Below are positions 6,592 through 21,408 of a stretch of DNA of 36,467 nucleotides, piece by piece. The notes beneath the pieces were generated by a model. It saw only the letters and a list, made by a program, of their open reading frames with translations, did not search any database and had not been told where the DNA came from. A program made the position numbers and the translations under genes. The stretch is from positions 1 to 36,467 of the forward strand of contig JACCXX010000019.1 in NCBI GenBank assembly GCA_013696805.1, written 5' to 3'. This DNA is from Actinomycetota bacterium (lineage in GTDB: Bacteria > Actinomycetota > Thermoleophilia > Gaiellales > Gaiellaceae). The stretch's first letter is position 1; the number at the start of each line of letters is the position of its first letter.

Positions 6592-7146
6592 ATGTCCGCC
6601 TCCGCGGCGCCTGCGCCGCTCGCAGCTCTTCCAAACGCGCTCACCCTGCTGCGGCTACTCCTCATTCCACTGTTCGTCCTGCTGCTCGTACCGGCCGATG
6701 ACGGGCACAGCGTGGCAGCAGCGCTGGTCTTTGCCGTCGCTGGGGTCAGCGACTACCTCGACGGGTGGCTCGCGCGACGCTTGAACGTCCAGTCCGAGTT
6801 CGGCCGCGTGGCCGACCCGCTCGCCGACCGCCTGATGATCGACGCAGCAGTTGTGCTGCTCGTCCTCGTCCATGACCGGCTCCCATGGGCCGCTCTCGCG
6901 ATTATCTTCGCCCGGGACATTTTGCTCATCGCCGGGTACAGGTTGCTCATGCCTCGCGGTTACGAGCTCAACGTGAACTTCCTCGGGAAGTCAGCGACGT
7001 GGGTCCTCTACTGCGCGCTCTTCCTGATCCTTCTCACCGAGTCGAGCGCGGACTGGCCACTCTGGATCTTCTGGTTCGGCGTCGGCCTTGCGCTCGCGGC
7101 CGGCGGCCAGTACCTCCTGACCGCGTTGCGCGGAAGCCGCGCGTGA
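6592..7146 (+). CDS. pgsA: CDP-alcohol phosphatidyltransferase (PgsA-like)
   Basis: [23 protein letters not shown] matches DG(x)2AR(x)8G(x)3D(x)3D; multiple TM helices. Confidence 0.9.
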
Positions 7147-9668
7147 AAGCCGTCGTCATGGCCGGCGGCGAGGGCACGCGCCTCCGCCCGCTGACCTCGA
7201 ACCAGCCGAAGCCGATGGTCACCATCGTCGGCAAGCCCTGCATGGAGCACATCGTCGAGCTCCTCCGAGAGCATGGCTTCGAGGACGTGATCGTGACGGT
7301 CGCGTTTCTCCCGCAGGCCATCCGCTCGTACTTTGGAGACGGATCGACCCTGGGGCTCAACATGGAGTACTCCGTCGAGGAGACGCCTCTCGGCACGGCC
7401 GGCTCCGTCGGCCTGGCCGCGGACAAGCTCGACGACACCTTCCTGGTCATCTCGGGCGACGCGCTCTGCGACTTCGACCTGACGAAGCTCGTCGAATTCC
7501 ACCAGGAGCGTGGCGCGGCGGTGACCATCGGCCTGAAGTCGGTCGAGAACCCGCTCGAGTTCGGAATCGTCGTCACCGATGAGGACGGACGGGTCGAGCG
7601 TTTCCTGGAGAAGCCCTCGTGGAGCCAGGTCTTTTCGGACACGATCAATACCGGCGTCTACGTCGTCGAGCCCGAGGTGTTGCGCCACATCCCGACCAAC
7701 CAGCCGTACGATTTCTCCAAGGAGCTCTTTCCCCTCCTGCTCGAGATGGGCCGGCCGCTTTACGGGCTGCCGATGGAGGGCTACTGGCAGGACATCGGCA
7801 ACCTCGACCAGTACCGGCAGGCCAACTTCGATGCGCTCGAGGAAAGGGTCCGCCTGAATGTCCCCGGCGTTCGTCTGCGGGGCAACATCTGGGTAGGGGA
7901 GAGCGTCGACGTCGACGACATCGACCGACTCGAGGGCCCGGCGTTCCTCGGGAACTACTGTCGCGTCGCGCGCGAGGCGACCGTCGGCCCGTATGCCGTC
8001 CTCGGCACGAACGTCACGCTTCGAGAACGCGCCCGGACTTCGCGATCCGTGATCGAGGCCTCCACGCACATCGGCCGCGGCGCGCTCGTCGAGGGCGCCA
8101 TCGTCGGGCGCTCCTGTGACATCCGGGCCCACGCGCGCCTGCATGAGGGCGTAGCGCTCGGAGACGAAGTCACGATCGGTGCGGAGAGCGTCCTCATGCC
8201 CGGTGTGCGCGTCTACCCGCACAAGGAGGTGGACACCGGCACGCAGATCTTCGAGAGCCTGATCTGGGAGTCTCGCGCCTCCTCCAGCCTCTTCGACAAG
8301 GACGGCGTCTCCGGGCTGGTGAACGTCGATCTCACGCCGGAGGTCGTCACCCGGCTCGCGGTCGCGTTCGGCACTGCCCTGCCGCGCGGGGCGCACGTCG
8401 TCGCCAGCCGGGAAGCCGCCGCTGCATGCCGGCTCGTGGAGCGGGCCATGATCGCCGGCCTCAACTCGACGGGGGTGAACGTGGCCGACCTGCGCGTGCT
8501 GCCGAGCGCCGTGGGGCGCCATCTGCTGAAGAAGCACGACTACGACGCGGGCTTCCACGTCGGCCTCAGCTCGCACGACCAGGAGATCGTGATCATCCGC
8601 TTCTTCGAGCAACCCGGGATCCAGCTGACGCCGGCGATGCAGAAGGAGGTCGAAAAGCATTTCTCCCGTCAGGAGCTGCGACGTGCAGCGGCCGCTGACG
8701 TCGGGACGGTCGACTACCCGGTGCGGGCTCGCGAGAGCTACGCCGAGGACCTCTTGGCCACCCTCGACGTCGAGGCCATTCGCCGGCGCGGGCATCGCAT
8801 CGTCGTCGACTACGGCTACTCGGCGGCCTCGCTCGTGCTCCCACTCGTGCTCGGTCCGTTGGGGGTCGAGGCCGTCTCCGCGCATGCGTTCTCCCCTGCT
8901 CAGGCTGGCAACGGCGACGCGACCCTGCGCAGCCTGATCGGCCAGACGAAGAAGCTCGTCGCCGCGGTCGGCGCGGACTTCGGCGCCGTCGTCGACCGCT
9001 CGGCGGAGCGGCTCTACCTGATCGACGAGAAGGGCCGCGAGATCCCCGTCGAGCAGACGCTCCTCCTTTTTTTGCGCCTTCTCGGCTCGGACGGCCGGCG
9101 CGGAAAGCTCGCTTTCCCGGTCACCGTGACCAGCGAGGTTGACCGCATCGTGAAGGCGAGCGGCCTGGAGATCATCCGAACTCCGGCCTCGCATAGCGAG
9201 CTCACCAAAGCTGCCGCCGCCGACGGCGTGATCTTCGCTGCGGCGGTCGGCGGCGGGTATGTGTTTCCCGATTTCCTGCCGGCCTACGACGCGACGGCAA
9301 GCCTGTGCAAGCTTCTCGAGCTCCTGGCGCCGGTCAACGATCCGCTCTCGTCTCTGGTCGCCGACCTTCCGGTGTCGACCCTCGTGCACCGGCAGCTGCC
9401 GTGCCCGTGGTCGCAGAAGGGGCTGGTGATGCGCGTGCTGACAGAGCGTCTCAAAGACCGAGACCTGGATCTCCTCGACGGCATCAAGGTCAACGACCGT
9501 CGCGGGTGGGCGCAGCTTTTGCCCGACCCCGACGAGCCCCTGATCCACATCTACGCAGAAGGCTCGAGCGACGAGGCGTCGAACGAACTGGAGGACGAGC
9601 TCCGTGCCCTCGTCGAGGACGTCCTACAGCGCGAGGTGGGGGAGACTGAGGCTCCAATCTCAAGCTGA
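7143..9668 (+). CDS. Fused sugar-phosphate nucleotidyltransferase / left-handed beta-helix / phosphomannomutase-like domain protein
   Basis: [22 protein letters not shown] pyrophosphorylase motif; hexapeptide region; C-terminal phosphohexomutase fold with degenerate motifs. GTG start at 7143 overlaps the pgsA stop (GTGA). Confidence 0.9.
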
Positions 9669-9735
9669 GGTTGAACCTTGTAGCTGCTGCTGCTTTACTG
9701 GCACCGGCCAACAACGACAGAAAGGCGCCGCTTCC

Positions 9736-9984
9736 GTGGAACCGTTCCCCGATCTCGCTGCAATGGACGACTCCGACCTCAAGAAGCTCATCGACGAGCT
9801 GACGCACGACGAGCAGGAGATCTCGTACCGGCGGCGCCTTCTGCACGGGCGGATCGACATGCTGCGCACCGAGCTCGTTGCCAGGCTCCAGAAGTCGGAG
9901 GGGCGAAGCGTGCTCGAAGAGGTTGACGTCGACCGCCTGGCGGACATCCTCGCCGGCAAGGCCGCGCCACCGTCTGAGGCTTGA
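9736..9984 (+). CDS. Small helical protein, candidate RsiG-like c-di-GMP-binding anti-sigma factor
   Basis: DDSDLKKLIDELTHDEQEISYRRRLLHGRIDMLRTELVARL contains E-x3-S-x2-R-x3-H-x3-D, close to the RsiG motif E(X)3S(X)2R(X)3Q(X)3D. Start GTG 9736 or ATG 9763. Confidence 0.6.
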   Translation: MEPFPDLAAMDDSDLKKLIDELTHDEQEISYRRRLLHGRIDMLRTELVARLQKSEGRSVLEEVDVDRLADILAGKAAPPSEA

Positions 9985-9985
9985 T

Positions 9986-10453
9986 TTGAGCCACGTGTAC
10001 TGCCCCGAGTGTGGGTTTCAGAACCCGGAGGCCGCCAATTACTGCACGAAGTGCGGAGCCTTGCTCGTTCGTGACGAGTCGGGCTCGGACACGACGATGA
10101 GCTTTACGCCGGAGGAGGGCGATGAGGAGGGCGCAGAGATCCTGGATGAGCTGAAGGCCGAAGGGCCTGCCCTCGTCGTCCGCTCCGGAGGGGGGCGCGC
10201 GGGGGAACACTTCCTCCTCGAGCAAGAGAGCACGACGGTTGGCCGCTCGCCCGATTGCGAGATCTTCCTCGACGACGTCACCGTGTCCCGACGCCACGCC
10301 CTCGTCAAGCGCACGGACAACCAATTCTTCATTGAGGACCAGGGCAGCTTGAACGGCACGTTCCTGAACCGGCGGCGAATCGAGTCCGGGGCGCTGGAAG
10401 ACGGCGACGAGGTGCAGATTGGCAAGTACAAGCTCACCTTTCTGACCCCGTGA
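9986..10453 (+). CDS. Zinc-ribbon plus FHA domain protein (GarA/OdhI-like)
   Basis: CPECGFQNPEAANYCTKCG zinc ribbon; FHA motifs VGRSPDCEIFLDDVTVSRRHA, DQGSLNGTFLN; TTG start at 9986. Confidence 0.85.
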   Translation: MSHVYCPECGFQNPEAANYCTKCGALLVRDESGSDTTMSFTPEEGDEEGAEILDELKAEGPALVVRSGGGRAGEHFLLEQESTTVGRSPDCEIFLDDVTVSRRHALVKRTDNQFFIEDQGSLNGTFLNRRRIESGALEDGDEVQIGKYKLTFLTP

Positions 10454-11148
10454 GCGCGCTCCGCGAAGCCGAGCCCGCCGCGCGCCTACTTCACATCGGC
10501 GCGGTCTGCCGAGCGCTACAGGACGAGTTTGCGGACGTCTCGATCTCGAAGATCCGCTACCTGGAGGATCAGGGGCTGCTCAAGCCAAAGCGGACGAAAG
10601 GCCGTTACCGGCTCTTCGACGAGGACGACGTCGAGCGTCTCCGCACGATCCTCCGACTCCAGCGAGACGAATTCCTCCCGCTCCGCGTGATCCGGCAGGA
10701 ACTCGCCGATCCGGGCGCGGCGAAGGGAAAGCGCAAGCGGCGTTCCGCCGGCCTGGTGGGCCCGGAAGAGGAGATCGATGCTCGCGAGCTGTCCGAGCGC
10801 TCGGGAGCGACCCCGGCTCTGGTGCGGGAGCTAGAGGAGTTCGGGCTGCTCTCGCCGCGGACGGATGGTCGGGACAAGCGCTATGGCGCCGCCGACGCTG
10901 ACGTCGCGGCAGCCTGCGTCAAGCTCTCGGCCTACGGGATCGACCCCCGGCACCTGCGCGCCTTCCGCACGGCAGCCGACCGCGAGGCGAGCCTCCTCGA
11001 ACAGTTGCTCGCGCCGGGCCTGCGCTCGCGCAATGCGGAGCGACGCGAGGCTGCTCTCGACGATCTGCAGGGACTCTCGGAGATCGCCCAGGAGCTGGGG
11101 CAGGTCCTGTTCGCCCGTGCGCTCCGTAGAGTTGCCGCGCACTCATGA
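10450..11148 (+). CDS. MerR-family transcriptional regulator (FtsR/Rv1828-like)
   Basis: IRYLEDQGLLKPKRTKGRYRLFDEDDVERLRTILRLQ MerR HTH; position after an FHA gene matches actinobacterial garA-merR order. Confidence 0.85.
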   Translation: MSALREAEPAARLLHIGAVCRALQDEFADVSISKIRYLEDQGLLKPKRTKGRYRLFDEDDVERLRTILRLQRDEFLPLRVIRQELADPGAAKGKRKRRSAGLVGPEEEIDARELSERSGATPALVRELEEFGLLSPRTDGRDKRYGAADADVAAACVKLSAYGIDPRHLRAFRTAADREASLLEQLLAPGLRSRNAERREAALDDLQGLSEIAQELGQVLFARALRRVAAHS

Positions 11149-11666
11149 GCGCCGACGAGCTGAAAGCCAAGATCAGGGACGTTCCCGACTGGCCCGAGAA
11201 AGGCGTGATCTTCCGAGACATCATGCCCCTGCTGGCCGACCACGAGGCGCTGAATGAGACGATTGATCACATCGCCGCCTGGGCAAAGCCGAAGAAGCCC
11301 GACATCGTCGTGGGTGGCGAAGCCCGCGGGTTCTTCATCGGCTCGGCTGTGGCCTACAGCCTGGGTTGCGGCTTCGTGCCCGCGCGCCGGCCCGGGAAGC
11401 TGCCCTTGGCGACGATCGGCGCCGAATACGCGCTCGAGTACGGGACAAATGCGCTCGAATTACAGGCCGATGCCTTCGAGGGCGGCTCGCGCGTCCTCAT
11501 TCACGACGACGTCCTGGCCACCGGAGGAACGTCCAAGGCGATGGCAGGCCTCGTGGAGCAGCTCGGCGGCGACGTCGTCGGGATGGCCTTCATCATTGAG
11601 CTGGACTTCCTGAACGGCCGAGAACAGATCTCCGACTACGACGTCTTTTCCCTGATTCACTACTAA
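11145..11666 (+). CDS. apt: Adenine phosphoribosyltransferase
   Basis: DIVVGGEARGFFIGSAVAYSLGCGFVPARRPGKLP and VLIHDDVLATGGTSKA (PRPP site); ATGA overlap with upstream gene. Confidence 0.95.
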   Translation: MSADELKAKIRDVPDWPEKGVIFRDIMPLLADHEALNETIDHIAAWAKPKKPDIVVGGEARGFFIGSAVAYSLGCGFVPARRPGKLPLATIGAEYALEYGTNALELQADAFEGGSRVLIHDDVLATGGTSKAMAGLVEQLGGDVVGMAFIIELDFLNGREQISDYDVFSLIHY

Positions 11667-14104: not shown

Positions 14105-15154
14105 ATGACTGTCGAGATTGATCACGTTCTAGCTGCCGAGGACGTCCGCCAGTTCATCGACACTGCCGAGCAACACGGATCGGTGCGCGTCAGCGAGCTC
14201 ACAGACCTGTTCGAGACGCACGAGCTGGCACCGCTCGAGGCCGAGGCCCTCCAGCGGGAGCTCGAGCAGCGCGGAATCGAGATCGTCGAAGGAGAGAAGG
14301 AGCCGCAGCCTCCCGCTCCGCAGCCTCAGGTTTACGAGACGACGACCGATGCGCTGCAGCTCTTCCTGCGCGAGGCCGGCCGGCATGCTCTGCTGACCGC
14401 AGCCCAGGAGGTCGAGCTCGCGAAGAAGATCGAACGCGGGGACATGCAGGCCAAGCAACGGATGATCCAGTCGAACCTCCGCCTCGTCGTTTCGATCGCC
14501 AAGAACTATCGCAACCAGGGCCTCCCGTTCCTCGACCTCATCCAAGAAGGGACTCTTGGGCTCATCCGCGCCGTCGAGAAGTTCGACTGGCGCCGCGGCT
14601 TCAAGTTCTCGACCTACGCCACCTGGTGGATCCGCCAGGCCGTTGCCCGTGCGCTGGCCGACAAGGCGCGCACGATCCGGATGCCTGTCCACATCGTCGA
14701 GCGCCTGCAAAAGATGAACAAGGCCGAGCGGATTCTGTGGACTCAGCTTGGCCGCGAGCCGACGCTCGCAGAGATCGCCGAAGAGGCCAGCCTTCCGGTC
14801 GACCAGGCGCGCGAGGTGCGCGCGGCAGCCCGTGCTTCGACCAGCCTCGACCAGCCGGTCGGCGAGCAGGAGGACGCGGTCTTCGGCGACTTCGTGGCCG
14901 GCGACGGACCGTCACCCGAGGACGAGGTCGAGACCTCGCTTCGAAGCCAGGCGCTGATTCGCGGGCTGGCCGCTCTCTCCGAGCGCGAGCGCAAGGTGCT
15001 CGCCCTTCGCTATGGGCTGGGCGAGGCTGAGCCGAAGACCCTGGAGGAAATCGGTCGGCGCCTCGGGCTGACGCGAGAGCGCGTCCGCCAGATCGAGGTT
15101 CACGCCCTTAGACGCCTGTCAAAGCTGCGCGAGATGGAGTCTGTTGCCGGCTGA
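14105..15154 (+). CDS. rpoD: RNA polymerase sigma factor, RpoD/SigA family, with region 1.1-like N-terminus
   Basis: [61 protein letters not shown]; region 4 [27 protein letters not shown]. Confidence 0.9.
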
Positions 15155-15879: not shown

Positions 15880-16842
15880 CTACCCCTCGTCCAGGTACAG
15901 CTGCAAGCCGGGCGCGACGTTGCGCAGCTCGCGCAGAGCGCGGGCCTCCAGCTGGCGAACGCGCTCGCGGGTGATGCCGAGGCCGACACCGACCTGCTCG
16001 AGTGTGTGGGGCGTATGCCCGTCGAGACCGAAGCGCAGGGCGAGCACCCGGCGCATGCGCGGGTTGAGCCCCTCGAGCGCGCCGGCGAGCTCCTTCGAGC
16101 GCAGACCCTTGGCGGTCACGGCGTCCGGGCGATCGGACTTCGTGTCCTCGATCAGGTCGCCGTAGAGGCTCTCGCCGTCACCGACCGGGGTCTCGAGACT
16201 GACCGGGTCCTCGACGAGGTCGAGGAGCTCCTGAACACGCTCTGGCGTAAAGCCGCTCTCCTTCGCGATCTCCGTGACGAGCGGATCGCGATTCAACTTC
16301 TGGGTCAGGATGCGCCGCGCACGCAAGACTTTTCGCGCCGCGTCGGCGACGTGGACGGGCAGCCTGATCGTGCGACCCTGGTCGGCGAGAGCACGGGTCA
16401 CCGCCTGGCGAATCCACCAGGTGGCGTAGGTCGAAAGCTTGAAGCCGAGCTTGTAGTCGAACTTCTCGACCGCTCGGATGAGACCGAGGTTTCCCTCCTG
16501 GATCAGGTCGAGGAGAGGAACGCCCGCTCTTGTGTAGTTCCGCGTGATCGACATCACGAGGCGCAGATTCGATTCGATCAGCTTCCGCTTCGCTGCCTCG
16601 TCGCCTTCGTCCTTGCGTCTGGCGAGCTCACGCTCCTCCACTGGGGTGAGCAGGCGGCCGTCACCGATCTGGCGCACGTAGAGCTTGAGTGGATCCTGGG
16701 TCACCGCGGCGACGGCCTTGTCAGGCGCGTCTTCTTTCTCCTCCACCTCCTCGGTGGGGTCGCCGAGCGCGCCGGAAATGACCTCGAGCTTGGGCTCGAA
16801 GTGATCGGGCTCGGGAGGTGGCTGGTGGAGCGGCCGCGCCAT
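15880..16842 (-). CDS. Second RpoD-family sigma factor
   Basis: [61 protein letters not shown]; region 4 [27 protein letters not shown]. Confidence 0.9.
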
Positions 16843-17127: not shown

Positions 17128-17922
17128 ATGTGTGGAATCGCCGGATATAGCCTGGATCGCTCGAGCCGCGTCTCGCGGACTCTGGCTGCTCAGGCGCTCC
17201 TGGCGGCGATCGCCGAGCGTGGCGCCGATGCTGTCGGCTATGCGCACCGGGGAATTGACGGAGCCGTTGTCGTCCACAAGCAGCGCACCGGGGCGAGCGC
17301 CTTTCTCGACCGCATCTCAATGCCGTGGGAGACCACGCAGGCGCTCATCCACGTGCGCGACTACACCAAAGGCCATCCGACGATCGGGGCGAACAACCAT
17401 CCCGTTCGCCACGGAAGCGTCGTGGGAGTCCACAACGGCATCATCCTGAACGACGAGGAGATCTTCGCGCGGCACAGGTTCGAACGAGCCGCCCCTCGCA
17501 TGACCGTGGACACCGAGGCGATCTTGGCGGTTGCGGAGGAGTCGGACTCGAGCGCCGAGGCGCTCGAGGAGCTTTGTGGCTCCATGGCAACGGCCTGGCT
17601 CGATGAGCGCCGACCCGACACGCTCTTCGTAGCGCGCGGCGTCGGCCGGCCCATCTGGGTTGGAACCGGCTCACGTGAGACCTTCTTCGCGTCGACGAAG
17701 CACGCGCTCGAGGTGCTGGAGAAGTACCTGGGCCTTCGACTTCGGAAGCGCGAGGTCGGAGAGGGCACGTTGCTTGCCCTCGAGCACGGGAAGCTTGTTC
17801 GCACCGACCGGTTCCAGCCTAATCGCGAGTTCGAGGAGACCGCTCTCCCCGCTGTGCGCGCCCCGCAGGAGCGCGTCGCGTGCCTGCGCCGTCTAGCCGC
17901 GATTGCGGCTGCGCTTGGCTAG
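17128..17922 (+). CDS. Stand-alone class II glutamine amidotransferase (Ntn-type glutaminase) domain protein
   Basis: N-terminal MCGIAGY nucleophile Cys; GANNHPVRHGSVVGVHNGIILND; no synthetase domain in 264 aa. Confidence 0.85.
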   Translation: MCGIAGYSLDRSSRVSRTLAAQALLAAIAERGADAVGYAHRGIDGAVVVHKQRTGASAFLDRISMPWETTQALIHVRDYTKGHPTIGANNHPVRHGSVVGVHNGIILNDEEIFARHRFERAAPRMTVDTEAILAVAEESDSSAEALEELCGSMATAWLDERRPDTLFVARGVGRPIWVGTGSRETFFASTKHALEVLEKYLGLRLRKREVGEGTLLALEHGKLVRTDRFQPNREFEETALPAVRAPQERVACLRRLAAIAAALG

Positions 17923-18600
17923 CCGCCCTTCAGGTGACACCTTCACACCCTGCTCGCCCAGCCGCTCCGACACCAGGTACTGAAACGTCGACCATGCCCC
18001 GGGACCGGGCTCGAGCATCCGGTAGACCTGCCACTCGGTAAGCATGGTCCCGTCTCCCCCACGCCGGGCCTCCCCCCAGTCGGCGAACTTCGGCAGCCGG
18101 CCAAGCCTCTTTGCCAACCCGGCGCCCTGTTCGATCGCGCGCTCGAGGCGCTCTTCGCCGACCGGCACGTCGAAGCCGGCCTCACGTAGGGCCGCCGTCA
18201 ACGATCCGAACGTGTGCCAGTAGAGAGACTTGGAAGGCATCGAAGCGCGGTGCTCGTCGAGGTCGCGGGCCGTCGGCGTTCGTTTGAGCTCCTCGCCGAG
18301 CTCCCGTAGGAGCCGTACGAGGTCCTCCCGCGTAGCGAACCGGCGAGGGACGAGCCCTGCCTGGCGCTTGGCCTTGTTCCAGCTCCCGAAGTGCTGGATG
18401 ACGGTCTGCGGGTGCACCGTGGTCTGCGCGTCAGCCTCGAACTCGCGCATCGTCGGCGAACGGCCGAGCCGCTCGGCGCATTCCGCGAGCTGCTCGAGGA
18501 TCTGCTCGTCCGAGTAGCGGCGTCGAATTCCTGACTGGAACTCGGCTAAGCGCTCACGATCGATCTTTGCGAGGGCACGGTAGGCCCCCTTCCGGGGCAT
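17893..18600 (-). CDS. Homing-endonuclease-associated repeat (HNH_repeat-like) protein without a nuclease domain
   Basis: Two clear repeats (LAECAERLGRSPTMREF...HFGSWNKAKRQAGL; LRELGEELKRTPTARDL...TFGSLTAALREAGF) and a third divergent copy. Confidence 0.7.
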   Translation of the reverse strand: MPRKGAYRALAKIDRERLAEFQSGIRRRYSDEQILEQLAECAERLGRSPTMREFEADAQTTVHPQTVIQHFGSWNKAKRQAGLVPRRFATREDLVRLLRELGEELKRTPTARDLDEHRASMPSKSLYWHTFGSLTAALREAGFDVPVGEERLERAIEQGAGLAKRLGRLPKFADWGEARRGGDGTMLTEWQVYRMLEPGPGAWSTFQYLVSERLGEQGVKVSPEGRLAKRSRNRG

Positions 18601-18657: not shown

Positions 18658-21408
18658 CTATGAGGCTGCTGCGGCCAAGTCGAGCCGTGCCTGCTCGTCC
18701 GCCAGGATCTCCGGCGGCAGCACGCCCTCCAGAGCGTCCACGCAACGCGGGCAGAACTGTGTTCCCGCGGCCTTCTTGAGCTCGTCCATCGCCTCCAGCG
18801 CGGGTCGGGCCGCGCGGTAGATGCGGGTTGTCAGCATGGAGTCGAGCGCATCAGCGACGTGGATGATCCGTGCGCCGAGCGGGATCTCCTCCCCCTTCAG
18901 CGCATCTGGATAGCCGGTGCCGTCGAAGCGCTCGTGGTGATGGCGAATCGCAGGCACGGCGTCGTTCAAGAACCCGAGGCGGTCGATGATGCGTGCGCCC
19001 TCGTCCGAGTGGCGCTGCATGAGCGTCCATTCCTCTTCCGTCAACACGGCCGGCTTCAGCAGGATCGCGTCTGGAACGGCGAGCTTGCCGATGTCGTGGA
19101 ACAGAGCCGCGTGACCGAGGAGGTCGAGCTCGCCCCGCGAAAGCCCTAGCTTGCTGCCGATGGCCAGAGCGAGCTGCTGCACGCGGCGTGAATGGCCGGC
19201 AGTGTAGGCATCGCGCGCGTCGACCGTGGCCGAGAGGCTCTCCATGGCAGCCGTCGAGCGTTCCTTCAAGAGCTTGTTGGCGCGCTCGAGAGAGACATTC
19301 TGCGTCTGAATGGTTTCCGCTGCTTCTCGAAGCTTCTGGGCGCTCTTCTGCGTGTGCCGCAGGTATGTCTCCTGTGTCCTGCGCATCAGCAGGAGAGGCA
19401 CTGCGAAGACGGCGAGGGCGTAGAGACCCGCTGCGTGGTAGGCGATCGCCATGACGCCGCCGACGAAGCCGTAGACGACCCAGTGCGGCGCCAGCCAGGC
19501 AAAGCGTTCGTGCCAGGCGGCCCACCAGCGCTGGTGACCCTCCATGGCCATCGCCAGGCTCGTGAGACCCGTATTGACGGCGAAGTAGGTGAGGCCGGCT
19601 GCGAGGCCCGCAGCGGCGGTCACGAACTCACCGAGGGGCCCCTCGAAGCCCAGGGCAAAAACTCCTGCGGCCGCGAGCGAGGCTAGACAGAGCGAGCCGA
19701 TATTGAAGAGCACGTAGTGACCCGGGTAGCGTCGCGCGCTCCAGTGCACCGCTGCCGTAGTCACAGCCAGCGGTAGCGCAGCCCGAGGTCCGAAGAGGGC
19801 TGCTCCCGCTAGCGCGCCCACGGCGCTGACCGAGATCGAGCCGTCATCAACCTCGAGGGCCAGCGCCTCTCCAAGGCCGACGAGCACGACGAGCGCGACC
19901 AGGGCGAAAAAATGCTGGTTGCTTCCGAAAGCGAGCCCGAAGGCTCCCGCGCCGATGCCGACCGCCGTCACGAGTGAGACGACGGCTGCCAGTGGACGTG
20001 ATTGCAGGAAGCTCGGCCCGTGCACGACGTGCGCCCGCGGATGACGCCGCTCCTCGGGCGGAATCGCCTCGACGGCCGGGGGCAACGGAGTGGTGTGGTT
20101 ACCTGCCTGAGGTACCGCTACGAGCCGTGGCTTGCGGTCGACCGGGACCGCGAGGGGCTCCGAGCTCGCGTCGAGCACGCGGTTTCGGCCCTGGAGCTTG
20201 GCCCGGTAGACGGCAAGGTCTGCCTGGTGGATGAGCTCGTTGGCGTCTCCCCCGTCTCGCGGGAAAGTGGCGACGCCGAGCGAAATGGTCACGCGAATCG
20301 GCTGGCTTGACGTTTCGACGTCGATGGCGCGCGCGGCAACTGCCGCACGGATGCGCTCTGCGATCTCGAGCGCCTCCTCCGTGTCCGTCTCGGGAAGCAG
20401 GATGCTGAACTCCTCGCCACCGAACCGCGCCGGCACGTCGTAATGGCGCAGTTCCAGGCGGAAGGTCTCGGCGATCCCCTTGAGCACGGCGTCGCCGGCG
20501 AGGTGTCCATAGGAGTTGTTGATGTCACGGAGCAGGTCGAGGTCGGCCATGAGCAACGCGAAGGGTCGGTCGAAGCGACTCGCTCGCGCTATTTCCTCCG
20601 CCAGCGCGACGCCGAAGTGGCGCGCGTTGAAGAGCCCTGTCTTGGGATCGACCCGCGCCTCGGCTTTGAGTTGAGGCACGCTCAGCGACCGGTGGATGAG
20701 GAGCACCGGGGCGATCGCGAAGGGGATCAGCCACGGGTTGAGGTTCCAGAACGTCGCGAGGACGACACCGAGGGCGGCCAGCACGAGCTCCGTCGAGAGG
20801 CTGTGGAACGAGAAGAGCCCCGAGTCCTTGATCGAGTGCCCACGGGCCAGCATGAGCATCGGAGCGAGTAGCGCGTGGTTCAGTCCGACGAGCACGAGCG
20901 ACGCGGCGCAGCCGGCAAGGGCGAAGCGCAGCTCGCCGTTCGCGACCAGCTCGTCGCCGCGCAAAACGAGTCGCGCACTTCCCCACGCTGCAAGCGTCGC
21001 GAGGATGTAGTTCGAGATGTTGAAGGACTCGATATACCAAGCCGTTCGGTTCTTCAACCAGGCCGGGATGTGTTGAACGATCGCGACCAGCGCGACCAGC
21101 TCCGGCGGAAGCAGGAGGACGGCGGGGACGAGGAACACATTCGTCGCGTGGTACGACTGGTTCCTCGGCGTCTTGACGAGGAGCACCTGAGCCAGCGCCG
21201 TCGCCGTGGCGAGCAAGAGGAACGTCGCCCACAGACGCACGGGCTGCTGCTCGTGCTGGAGTCGACTCAGCACCGGGATAGCCACGGCAGCAGCCGCCAG
21301 GGCGATCGCGATCAGGTACGCGCGAGCAGGCGTCGAGAGGCGGGTTTTTCTCCCGTCGCGCGACCTAGGCCCACGGCCGAGCGCAAGCTCACTCGGAATC
21401 GCGCTCAA
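18658..21408 (-). CDS. Membrane c-di-GMP enzyme: TM module-GGDEF-TM module-HD-GYP
   Basis: RFGGEEFSILLP with I-site RHYD five residues upstream; FHDIGK and HHERFDGTGYP; two multi-TM regions. Confidence 0.9.
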   Translation of the reverse strand: MSAIPSELALGRGPRSRDGRKTRLSTPARAYLIAIALAAAAVAIPVLSRLQHEQQPVRLWATFLLLATATALAQVLLVKTPRNQSYHATNVFLVPAVLLLPPELVALVAIVQHIPAWLKNRTAWYIESFNISNYILATLAAWGSARLVLRGDELVANGELRFALAGCAASLVLVGLNHALLAPMLMLARGHSIKDSGLFSFHSLSTELVLAALGVVLATFWNLNPWLIPFAIAPVLLIHRSLSVPQLKAEARVDPKTGLFNARHFGVALAEEIARASRFDRPFALLMADLDLLRDINNSYGHLAGDAVLKGIAETFRLELRHYDVPARFGGEEFSILLPETDTEEALEIAERIRAAVAARAIDVETSSQPIRVTISLGVATFPRDGGDANELIHQADLAVYRAKLQGRNRVLDASSEPLAVPVDRKPRLVAVPQAGNHTTPLPPAVEAIPPEERRHPRAHVVHGPSFLQSRPLAAVVSLVTAVGIGAGAFGLAFGSNQHFFALVALVVLVGLGEALALEVDDGSISVSAVGALAGAALFGPRAALPLAVTTAAVHWSARRYPGHYVLFNIGSLCLASLAAAGVFALGFEGPLGEFVTAAAGLAAGLTYFAVNTGLTSLAMAMEGHQRWWAAWHERFAWLAPHWVVYGFVGGVMAIAYHAAGLYALAVFAVPLLLMRRTQETYLRHTQKSAQKLREAAETIQTQNVSLERANKLLKERSTAAMESLSATVDARDAYTAGHSRRVQQLALAIGSKLGLSRGELDLLGHAALFHDIGKLAVPDAILLKPAVLTEEEWTLMQRHSDEGARIIDRLGFLNDAVPAIRHHHERFDGTGYPDALKGEEIPLGARIIHVADALDSMLTTRIYRAARPALEAMDELKKAAGTQFCPRCVDALEGVLPPEILADEQARLDLAAAAS

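What the first reader, a model, noticed from the sequence alone, without database searches (positions are those of the whole stretch)
9736..9984. Single-motif RsiG-like c-di-GMP anti-sigma candidate, inserted beside an FHA-MerR pair
The 73-82 aa ORF contains DEQEISYRRRLLHGRIDML, i.e. E-x3-S-x2-R-x3-H-x3-D. Established: Streptomyces RsiG binds c-di-GMP with E(X)3S(X)2R(X)3Q(X)3D repeated on two helices, and a deep-branching Rubrobacter RsiG has one copy and homodimerises. Here there is one copy with Gln replaced by His. Inference: an ancestral-type RsiG, or a related ligand-binding helical hairpin. The same window encodes a GGDEF/HD-GYP enzyme (18658-21408), so the organism makes c-di-GMP.
Basis: partly seen in the sequence, partly recalled or inferred. 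Interest (0 to 1): 0.72.

Follow-up and report, generated by a model that had tools for sequence, protein, structure and literature searches.

The report
Single-motif RsiG in an FtsR operon
This small gene encodes a genuine member of the known RsiG family, a protein that holds a sigma factor inactive when it binds the messenger c-di-GMP; the unreported part is that single-motif rsiG genes across the phylum sit in one operon with a metabolic switch protein (OdhI/GarA type) and the cell-division regulator FtsR, behind a promoter that carries an FtsR-like binding site.

Summary
Window 9736-9984 (+) encodes an 82-aa RsiG: Pfam RsiG E=7e-19, over cut-off; PDB relatives are RsiG of Streptomyces and Rubrobacter. 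It has one motif, E26-x3-S30-x2-R33-x3-H37-x3-D41. The Gln-to-His change is not new: Conexibacter RsiG has it and binds c-di-GMP. The cognate sigma is a WhiG on another contig that keeps the c-di-GMP-contacting residues; the two sigma genes in the window are RpoD-like.

rsiG was not 'inserted' beside the FHA-MerR pair. The pair is odhI/garA-like plus ftsR, and rsiG-FHA-ftsR is an old operon: FHA in 110/110 and FtsR in 107/110 Thermoleophilia loci, and in 24/25 single-motif loci from other families of the phylum. It is absent at 31/31 twin-motif loci outside the class. The rsiG promoter carries a conserved inverted repeat matching the published FtsR site; the repeat also occurs upstream of most relatives' ftsZ genes examined and is gone in a lineage that lost ftsR.

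Best reading: a homodimeric, c-di-GMP-armed anti-sigma of WhiG, made from an operon probably controlled by FtsR. The protein is a new member of a known kind. The operon link to division control appears unreported; binding and FtsR control are inferred, not shown.

The parts
9736..9984 (+). rsiG: single-motif c-di-GMP-responsive anti-sigma, 82 aa, GTG start
   Evidence: Pfam PF22802 E 7.4e-19 over cut-off; PDB 6pfj, 7lq2-4; AlphaFold2 helices 12-54 and 62-73, pLDDT 86, best PDB fold match 7lq4 RsiG, prob 0.91 but E 0.23
9811..9858 (+). c-di-GMP motif helix E26-x3-S30-x2-R33-x3-H37-x3-D41
   Evidence: Only match in six frames of the window; E, S, R, D invariant in 41 homologues
9655..9679 (+). 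FtsR-like box, CAATCTCAAGCTGAGGTTGAACCTT, inverted repeat TCAA-N7-TTGA; begins inside the end of the upstream manB-like gene
   Evidence: Conserved upstream of rsiG in most Thermoleophilia loci; matches the published FtsR site; only hit in the genome, control 0
9671..9699 (+). probable sigma-A-type promoter: -35 TTGAAC (9671-9676), 17-nt spacer, -10 TTTACT (9694-9699)
   Evidence: -35 and -10 elements conserved at this place in relatives; the strict consensus scan did not call it
9720..9725 (+). probable ribosome-binding site GAAAGG
   Evidence: Sequence and conservation in many relatives
9986..10453 (+). zinc-ribbon plus FHA protein, OdhI/GarA-like, TTG start 1 nt after rsiG
   Evidence: FHA 5.7e-22 and Zn_Ribbon_1 2e-7; NCBIfam OdhI 1.9e-37 but 128 bits, below the 200 cut-off
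10450..11148 (+). ftsR: MerR-family division regulator, 4-nt overlap with the FHA gene
   Evidence: NCBIfam FtsR equivalog, 211 bits against a cut-off of 150
11145..11666 (+). apt: adenine phosphoribosyltransferase, 4-nt overlap with ftsR
   Evidence: NCBIfam equivalog over cut-off
7143..9668 (+). upstream neighbour: nucleotidyltransferase/phosphomannomutase-like fusion (ORF 6885-9668, start probably GTG 7143 by sequence)
   Evidence: Homologue upstream of rsiG in many relatives; function name from reading the sequence, not from a profile search
6592..7146 (+). upstream neighbour: CDP-alcohol phosphatidyltransferase-like (pgsA-like)
   Evidence: Homologue upstream of rsiG in 71 of 80 named loci; function name from reading the sequence
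18658..21408 (-). GGDEF plus HD-GYP protein: a likely maker and breaker of c-di-GMP
   Evidence: Pfam GGDEF 3e-44, HD_5 2.3e-35; motifs intact

Best explanation
The gene encodes a single-motif RsiG. Two copies form an antiparallel coiled coil; each helix gives one E-S-R-H-D motif, and together they clamp two c-di-GMP molecules onto the sigma factor WhiG (contig C178 of this genome), keeping WhiG off RNA polymerase while c-di-GMP is high (identification shown here; binding and dimer inferred from the solved Rubrobacter complex and the tested Conexibacter protein). The gene is first in an operon rsiG - zinc-ribbon/FHA (OdhI/GarA-like) - ftsR - apt (gene order shown; co-transcription inferred from the 1-nt gap and 4-nt overlaps). 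The operon has its own sigma-A-type promoter whose -35 is covered by an FtsR-like site, so FtsR probably controls its own operon and with it the supply of the anti-sigma factor (inferred from motif and co-loss).
For: Profile, PDB and motif. RsiG of C. woesei with His binds c-di-GMP, Kd 25 uM alone and 1.7 uM with WhiG (PMC8325347). Own WhiG: NCBIfam WhiG 353 bits over its cut-off of 343; keeps K57, G61, R62 of S. venezuelae WhiG, the residues that touch c-di-GMP. RsiG and FliA/WhiG co-occur in 148 of 199 class genomes, RsiG alone 8, WhiG alone 7, neither 36. Operon conserved within and beyond the class and absent at twin-motif loci outside it. FtsR box: best match to the 25-bp C. glutamicum site averages 15.5 of 25 upstream of rsiG against 12.2 in shuffles; a matrix built from rsiG sites picks out 70% of relatives' ftsZ upstream regions at a 1% control rate. 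Three loci lacking ftsR keep the -35 and -10 but have no FtsR-like match above the shuffled level, and G114, one of those genomes, has no FtsR hit at all.
Against: No binding, dimer or regulation was measured. The window's own box matches the C. glutamicum site at only 14 of 25. The Conexibacter affinity of 25 uM without WhiG is weak. The strict promoter scan found no promoter. Sites resembling WhiG promoters in the genome are no more frequent than in the control (18 against 15), so the WhiG targets here are unknown. The FHA protein misses the OdhI cut-off. The genome is 72% complete.
Confidence: 0.85

Rival explanations
1. The protein is an RsiG-fold helical protein that no longer binds c-di-GMP, or acts on another partner such as the neighbouring FHA or FtsR protein instead of WhiG.
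For: In single-motif lineages rsiG stays with FHA and ftsR, and in this genome it is not next to whiG; eight class genomes show RsiG without a WhiG hit.
Against: All five motif positions kept with E, S, R, D invariant; strong co-occurrence with WhiG; seven of the eight exceptions are at most 90% complete. Tested single-motif relatives bind WhiG and c-di-GMP (PMC8325347).
Confidence: 0.07
2. The conserved repeat at 9655-9679 is simply the -35 region of a strong promoter, or the site of some other regulator, not of FtsR.
For: The right arm TTGA is part of the -35; the window's site matches the published FtsR motif only 14 of 25.
Against: The left arm CTCAAG lies outside the -35 and is conserved; the same matrix finds ftsZ upstream regions, the known FtsR target; three loci that lack ftsR keep the -35 and -10 but not the repeat.
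Confidence: 0.2
3. The match is a chance coiled coil with a motif-like run.
For: One charged helix of about 40 residues.
Against: Curated profile at E 7e-19, PDB relatives, conserved position and neighbours in more than a hundred loci.
Confidence: 0.01

Closest known systems
RsiG of Conexibacter woesei (Thermoleophilia), PMC8325347
   Same: Single motif with His at the fourth place; same class; binds c-di-GMP and WhiG in published tests
   Different: The published paper's main text does not mention the neighbouring genes
RsiG of Rubrobacter radiotolerans (PDB 7lq2, 7lq3, 7lq4)
   Same: Single-motif RsiG; solved as antiparallel homodimer with (c-di-GMP)2 and WhiG; a close relative (2e-35) sits in the same FHA-ftsR-apt operon (L180)
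   Different: Gln instead of His; controls type IV pili there; output here unknown
RsiG (AmfC) of Streptomyces venezuelae (PDB 6pfj, 6pfv)
   Same: Same motif, ligand and sigma partner family
   Different: Two motifs in one chain, acts as a monomer; twin-motif loci outside the class lack the FHA-ftsR neighbours (31 of 31)
odhI/garA - ftsR cluster of Corynebacterium and other actinobacteria (PMC6683498)
   Same: FHA gene followed by ftsR; FtsR site upstream of ftsZ
   Different: There followed by a bifunctional nuclease and a second MerR gene, with variable genes in front; here rsiG in front and apt behind

Membership tests
RsiG (single-motif) | Match to the curated RsiG profile | tested here: met
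   PF22802 67.6 bits against a cut-off of 27
RsiG (single-motif) | E-x3-S-x2-R-x3-[Q/H]-x3-D on the long helix, one copy | tested here: met
   One copy, E26 S30 R33 H37 D41; helix 12-54 predicted
RsiG (single-motif) | WhiG partner encoded in the genome with the c-di-GMP-contacting residues | tested here: met
   C178, NCBIfam WhiG equivalog; K, G, R kept in PLVKYVAGR
RsiG (single-motif) | Antiparallel homodimer | not testable with these tools
   Only single chains can be modelled; monomer model matches 7lq4 RsiG, prob 0.91, E 0.23
RsiG (single-motif) | Binds c-di-GMP and sequesters WhiG | not testable with these tools
   WhiG binding known for five published relatives; c-di-GMP binding measured for two, one of them with His
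FtsR | NCBIfam FtsR equivalog, gene directly after odhI/garA | tested here: met
   211 bits against 150; 4-nt overlap with the FHA gene
FtsR | Binds its inverted-repeat site upstream of ftsZ | tested here: inconclusive
   Boxes upstream of most relatives' ftsZ genes examined; own ftsZ site weak, 15 of 25; binding not testable
OdhI/GarA | NCBIfam OdhI equivalog cut-off | tested here: not met
   128 bits against 200: OdhI-like FHA with an extra zinc ribbon, so not filed as OdhI

The most novel reading that the evidence does not exclude
The single-motif RsiG switch began, and still works, as part of the division-control operon: FtsR reads an unknown growth signal and sets the level of the c-di-GMP anti-sigma factor, the FHA metabolic switch and itself together, so that WhiG output (surface structures or dispersal) is tied to division and nitrogen/carbon state. 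Duplication into twin-motif RsiG happened at least three times, and in the branch leading to Streptomyces the gene left this operon.
Probability: 0.45. Interest if true: 0.7.

Novelty: new member of a known kind. Interest (0 to 1): 0.5.

Why it matters
The protein itself confirms a known family. The surroundings give a testable lead: the ancestral c-di-GMP anti-sigma gene is in one operon with the regulator of ftsZ and an OdhI/GarA-like protein, in Thermoleophilia, a Rubrobacter-like family and about a dozen other families. This shows that single-motif and twin-motif rsiG differ in context as well as in form, broadens the published range of single-motif RsiG, and suggests a role for RsiG in bacteria that do not sporulate. 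It also bears on the published open question of what links FtsR to its OdhI/GarA neighbour.

Tried and rejected
NCBIfam has no RsiG model that hits. WhiG-type promoter scan (TAAA-N15-GCCGATAA, two mismatches) gave 18 hits against 15 in the reversed control, so no target is claimed. The two sigma genes in the window were considered as partners and rejected: region 1.2 present, best matches RpoD-type models, FliA/WhiG scores 107 and 84 bits against a cut-off of 190. 'Inserted gene' rejected by synteny. Flagellin was not found in the 72%-complete genome; one T2SSE-type ATPase was, so type IV pili are possible but not shown to be WhiG targets. A strict sigma-70 scan called no promoter; the promoter rests on conservation. 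Several early calls failed on wrong FHA coordinates.

Full report
Observation. The ORF at 9736-9984 (+) starts with GTG behind GAAAGG and gives 82 residues. It holds the motif E26-x3-S30-x2-R33-x3-H37-x3-D41, the only match to E-x3-S-x2-R-x3-[QH]-x3-D in six frames of the window.

Identity. Pfam has a curated RsiG family, PF22802, and the protein matches it over residues 2-72 at E 7.4e-19, far over the cut-off. In the PDB the relatives are the S. venezuelae RsiG (6pfj, deposited as AmfC) and Rubrobacter RsiG (7lq2, 7lq3, 7lq4). AlphaFold2 gives helix 12-54 and helix 62-73 (pLDDT 86), and the best PDB fold match is RsiG of 7lq4 (prob 0.91, though E 0.23). In 41 homologues E, S, R and D are invariant and His is at least 90% conserved.

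The His. Schumacher et al. 2021 (PMC8325347) report that the Gln of the first motif is often His, that His can make the same stacking contact, and that single-motif RsiG of Conexibacter woesei with His binds c-di-GMP (25 uM; 1.7 uM with WhiG). So the change is ordinary.

Partner. The two sigma genes in the window have region 1.2 and score best against RpoD-type models. The FliA/WhiG-family sigma is on contig C178 (289 bits), passes the NCBIfam WhiG cut-off (353 against 343), and keeps K, G and R of the helix PLVKYVAGR that contacts c-di-GMP (alignment; residues). Across 199 genomes of the class, RsiG and FliA/WhiG occur together in 148, RsiG alone in 8, WhiG alone in 7, neither in 36 (Fisher p 8e-25; genomes are related, so the p-value overstates). 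The c-di-GMP enzyme at 18658-21408 has intact GGEEF and HD-GYP motifs.

Surroundings. rsiG is followed after 1 nt by a zinc-ribbon/FHA protein (best NCBIfam model OdhI, below its cut-off), then by ftsR (NCBIfam FtsR equivalog, over cut-off) with a 4-nt overlap, then by apt with a 4-nt overlap. In 80 named loci from a scan with RsiG, from Thermoleophilia or from MAGs titled only as actinobacteria (one title, L098, says Bifidobacterium and looks mislabelled), FHA is present in 80, FtsR in 79, a pgsA-like gene in 71, apt in 66. With 30 further loci and profile searches the count is FHA 110/110 and FtsR 107/110. These two sets overlap in part (some loci are the same contig), so they are not fully independent. 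Twenty more loci chosen from other families of the class (f3, f4, f5, f6, f8) all show FHA and FtsR. The window's own family contains records named Gaiellaceae (the contig of G009 has the same length as that of L125), so the organism is probably a Gaiellales bacterium.

Beyond the class. In 25 single-motif loci from other families of the phylum, 24 have FHA and FtsR nearby; the exception, L257, is a second copy on a fragment cut by its contig end. One such family, f23, is very probably Rubrobacter-like: its RsiG matches the R. radiotolerans structure at 2e-35. In 31 twin-motif loci outside the class, none has FHA or FtsR in the fetched stretch, some of which are cut by contig ends. The gap between rsiG and FHA is larger in some of these families.

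Promoter. Upstream of rsiG in the class lies a conserved stretch CTCAAG-YTSAG-STTGACC followed by TATACT or TTTACT. In the window this is 9655-9676 with -35 TTGAAC 9671-9676 and -10 TTTACT 9694-9699. FtsR of C. glutamicum binds AACCCTAAAGTAAAGGTTGAGGGTA upstream of ftsZ (PMC6683498). The best match of rsiG upstream regions to this site averages 15.5 of 25, shuffles 12.2, and 60 scrambled versions of the consensus average at most 12.5. A matrix made from rsiG sites exceeds the 99th percentile of genomic controls in 70% of 30 ftsZ upstream regions of relatives. In the window's own genome the pattern hits once, at rsiG, with 0 control hits.

A natural experiment. Loci L011, L022 and L107 have no ftsR between FHA and apt; genome G114 (L022) has no FtsR hit at all, and its ftsZ upstream region has no clear box. 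In all three the rsiG promoter keeps TTGACC and TTTACT, but the best FtsR-site match falls to 11 of 25, the shuffled level. The three are close relatives, so this is one event. Two loci of the same kind (L026, L093) keep a diverged FtsR and also have an altered box, which fits but does not prove the link.

Duplications. Inside the class, five genomes of one genus (g2) and three of family f11 carry two RsiG motifs in one frame, still in front of FHA in all eight and of FtsR in seven; the eighth, L038, is cut by its contig end. In a tree of 138 motif units, the two units of g2 fall together with one single-motif sequence (support 0.88), those of f11 with five single-motif sequences (0.74), while units 1 and units 2 of the 31 outside twin-motif proteins form two separate clades (0.93, 0.97). 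This points to at least three duplications; the units are short and support is moderate. The g2 protein is predicted with two long helices and best matches S. venezuelae RsiG.

Mechanism, with status. Shown by sequence: RsiG identity, WhiG present, operon order, conserved promoter repeat. Inferred: homodimer, c-di-GMP-dependent binding of WhiG, co-transcription, FtsR control. Unknown: WhiG targets here; the WhiG promoter scan did not exceed its control.

Novelty. The protein is a new member of a known kind. The rsiG-FHA-ftsR operon and FtsR box were not found in the literature held: no paper contains both RsiG and FtsR, the RsiG paper's main text does not mention FHA or MerR neighbours, and the FtsR paper's main text does not mention RsiG. 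Subscription papers and supplements could not be searched.

Noticed in passing
L037-L041 (genus g2 of the window's family), L042-L044 (family f11): Twin-motif RsiG still in the FHA-ftsR operon inside Thermoleophilia, apparently from duplications independent of the Streptomyces-type one.
   Followed up: partly
L043, L044, L100: In f11 the two RsiG units share one frame, and in L043 and L100 a GGGAG-like site and ATG stand before the second unit, so one gene might give both a twin and a single protein.
   Followed up: no
L178-L195, L197, L214-L217, L256: Single-motif RsiG in many families of the phylum beyond Thermoleophilia and the Rubrobacter-like family, wider than the published range.
   Followed up: partly
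L011, L022, L107: A lineage that lost ftsR also lost the FtsR-like box before rsiG while keeping -35 and -10.
   Followed up: partly
G000:C98:8813-9742 and G000:C81:8324-9247; most relatives: Two ftsZ-type genes per genome in this group, both over the family cut-off.
   Followed up: no
14105-15154 (+) and 15880-16842 (-): Two RpoD-like sigma genes facing each other, both below the RpoD equivalog cut-offs; possible group 2 sigmas.
   Followed up: partly
17893-18600 (-): Protein made of homing-endonuclease-associated HNH repeats (Pfam PF18780), beside the GGDEF/HD-GYP gene.
   Followed up: no
G000:C43:25443-25469 (-): One-mismatch WhiG-type promoter 36 nt before a 212-aa proline-rich ORF; the only close match in the genome, but scan totals are at chance level.
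   Followed up: partly
L098 (CAMCUD010000013.1): A MAG record titled Bifidobacterium breve carries the Thermoleophilia-type operon, so its title is probably wrong.
   Followed up: no
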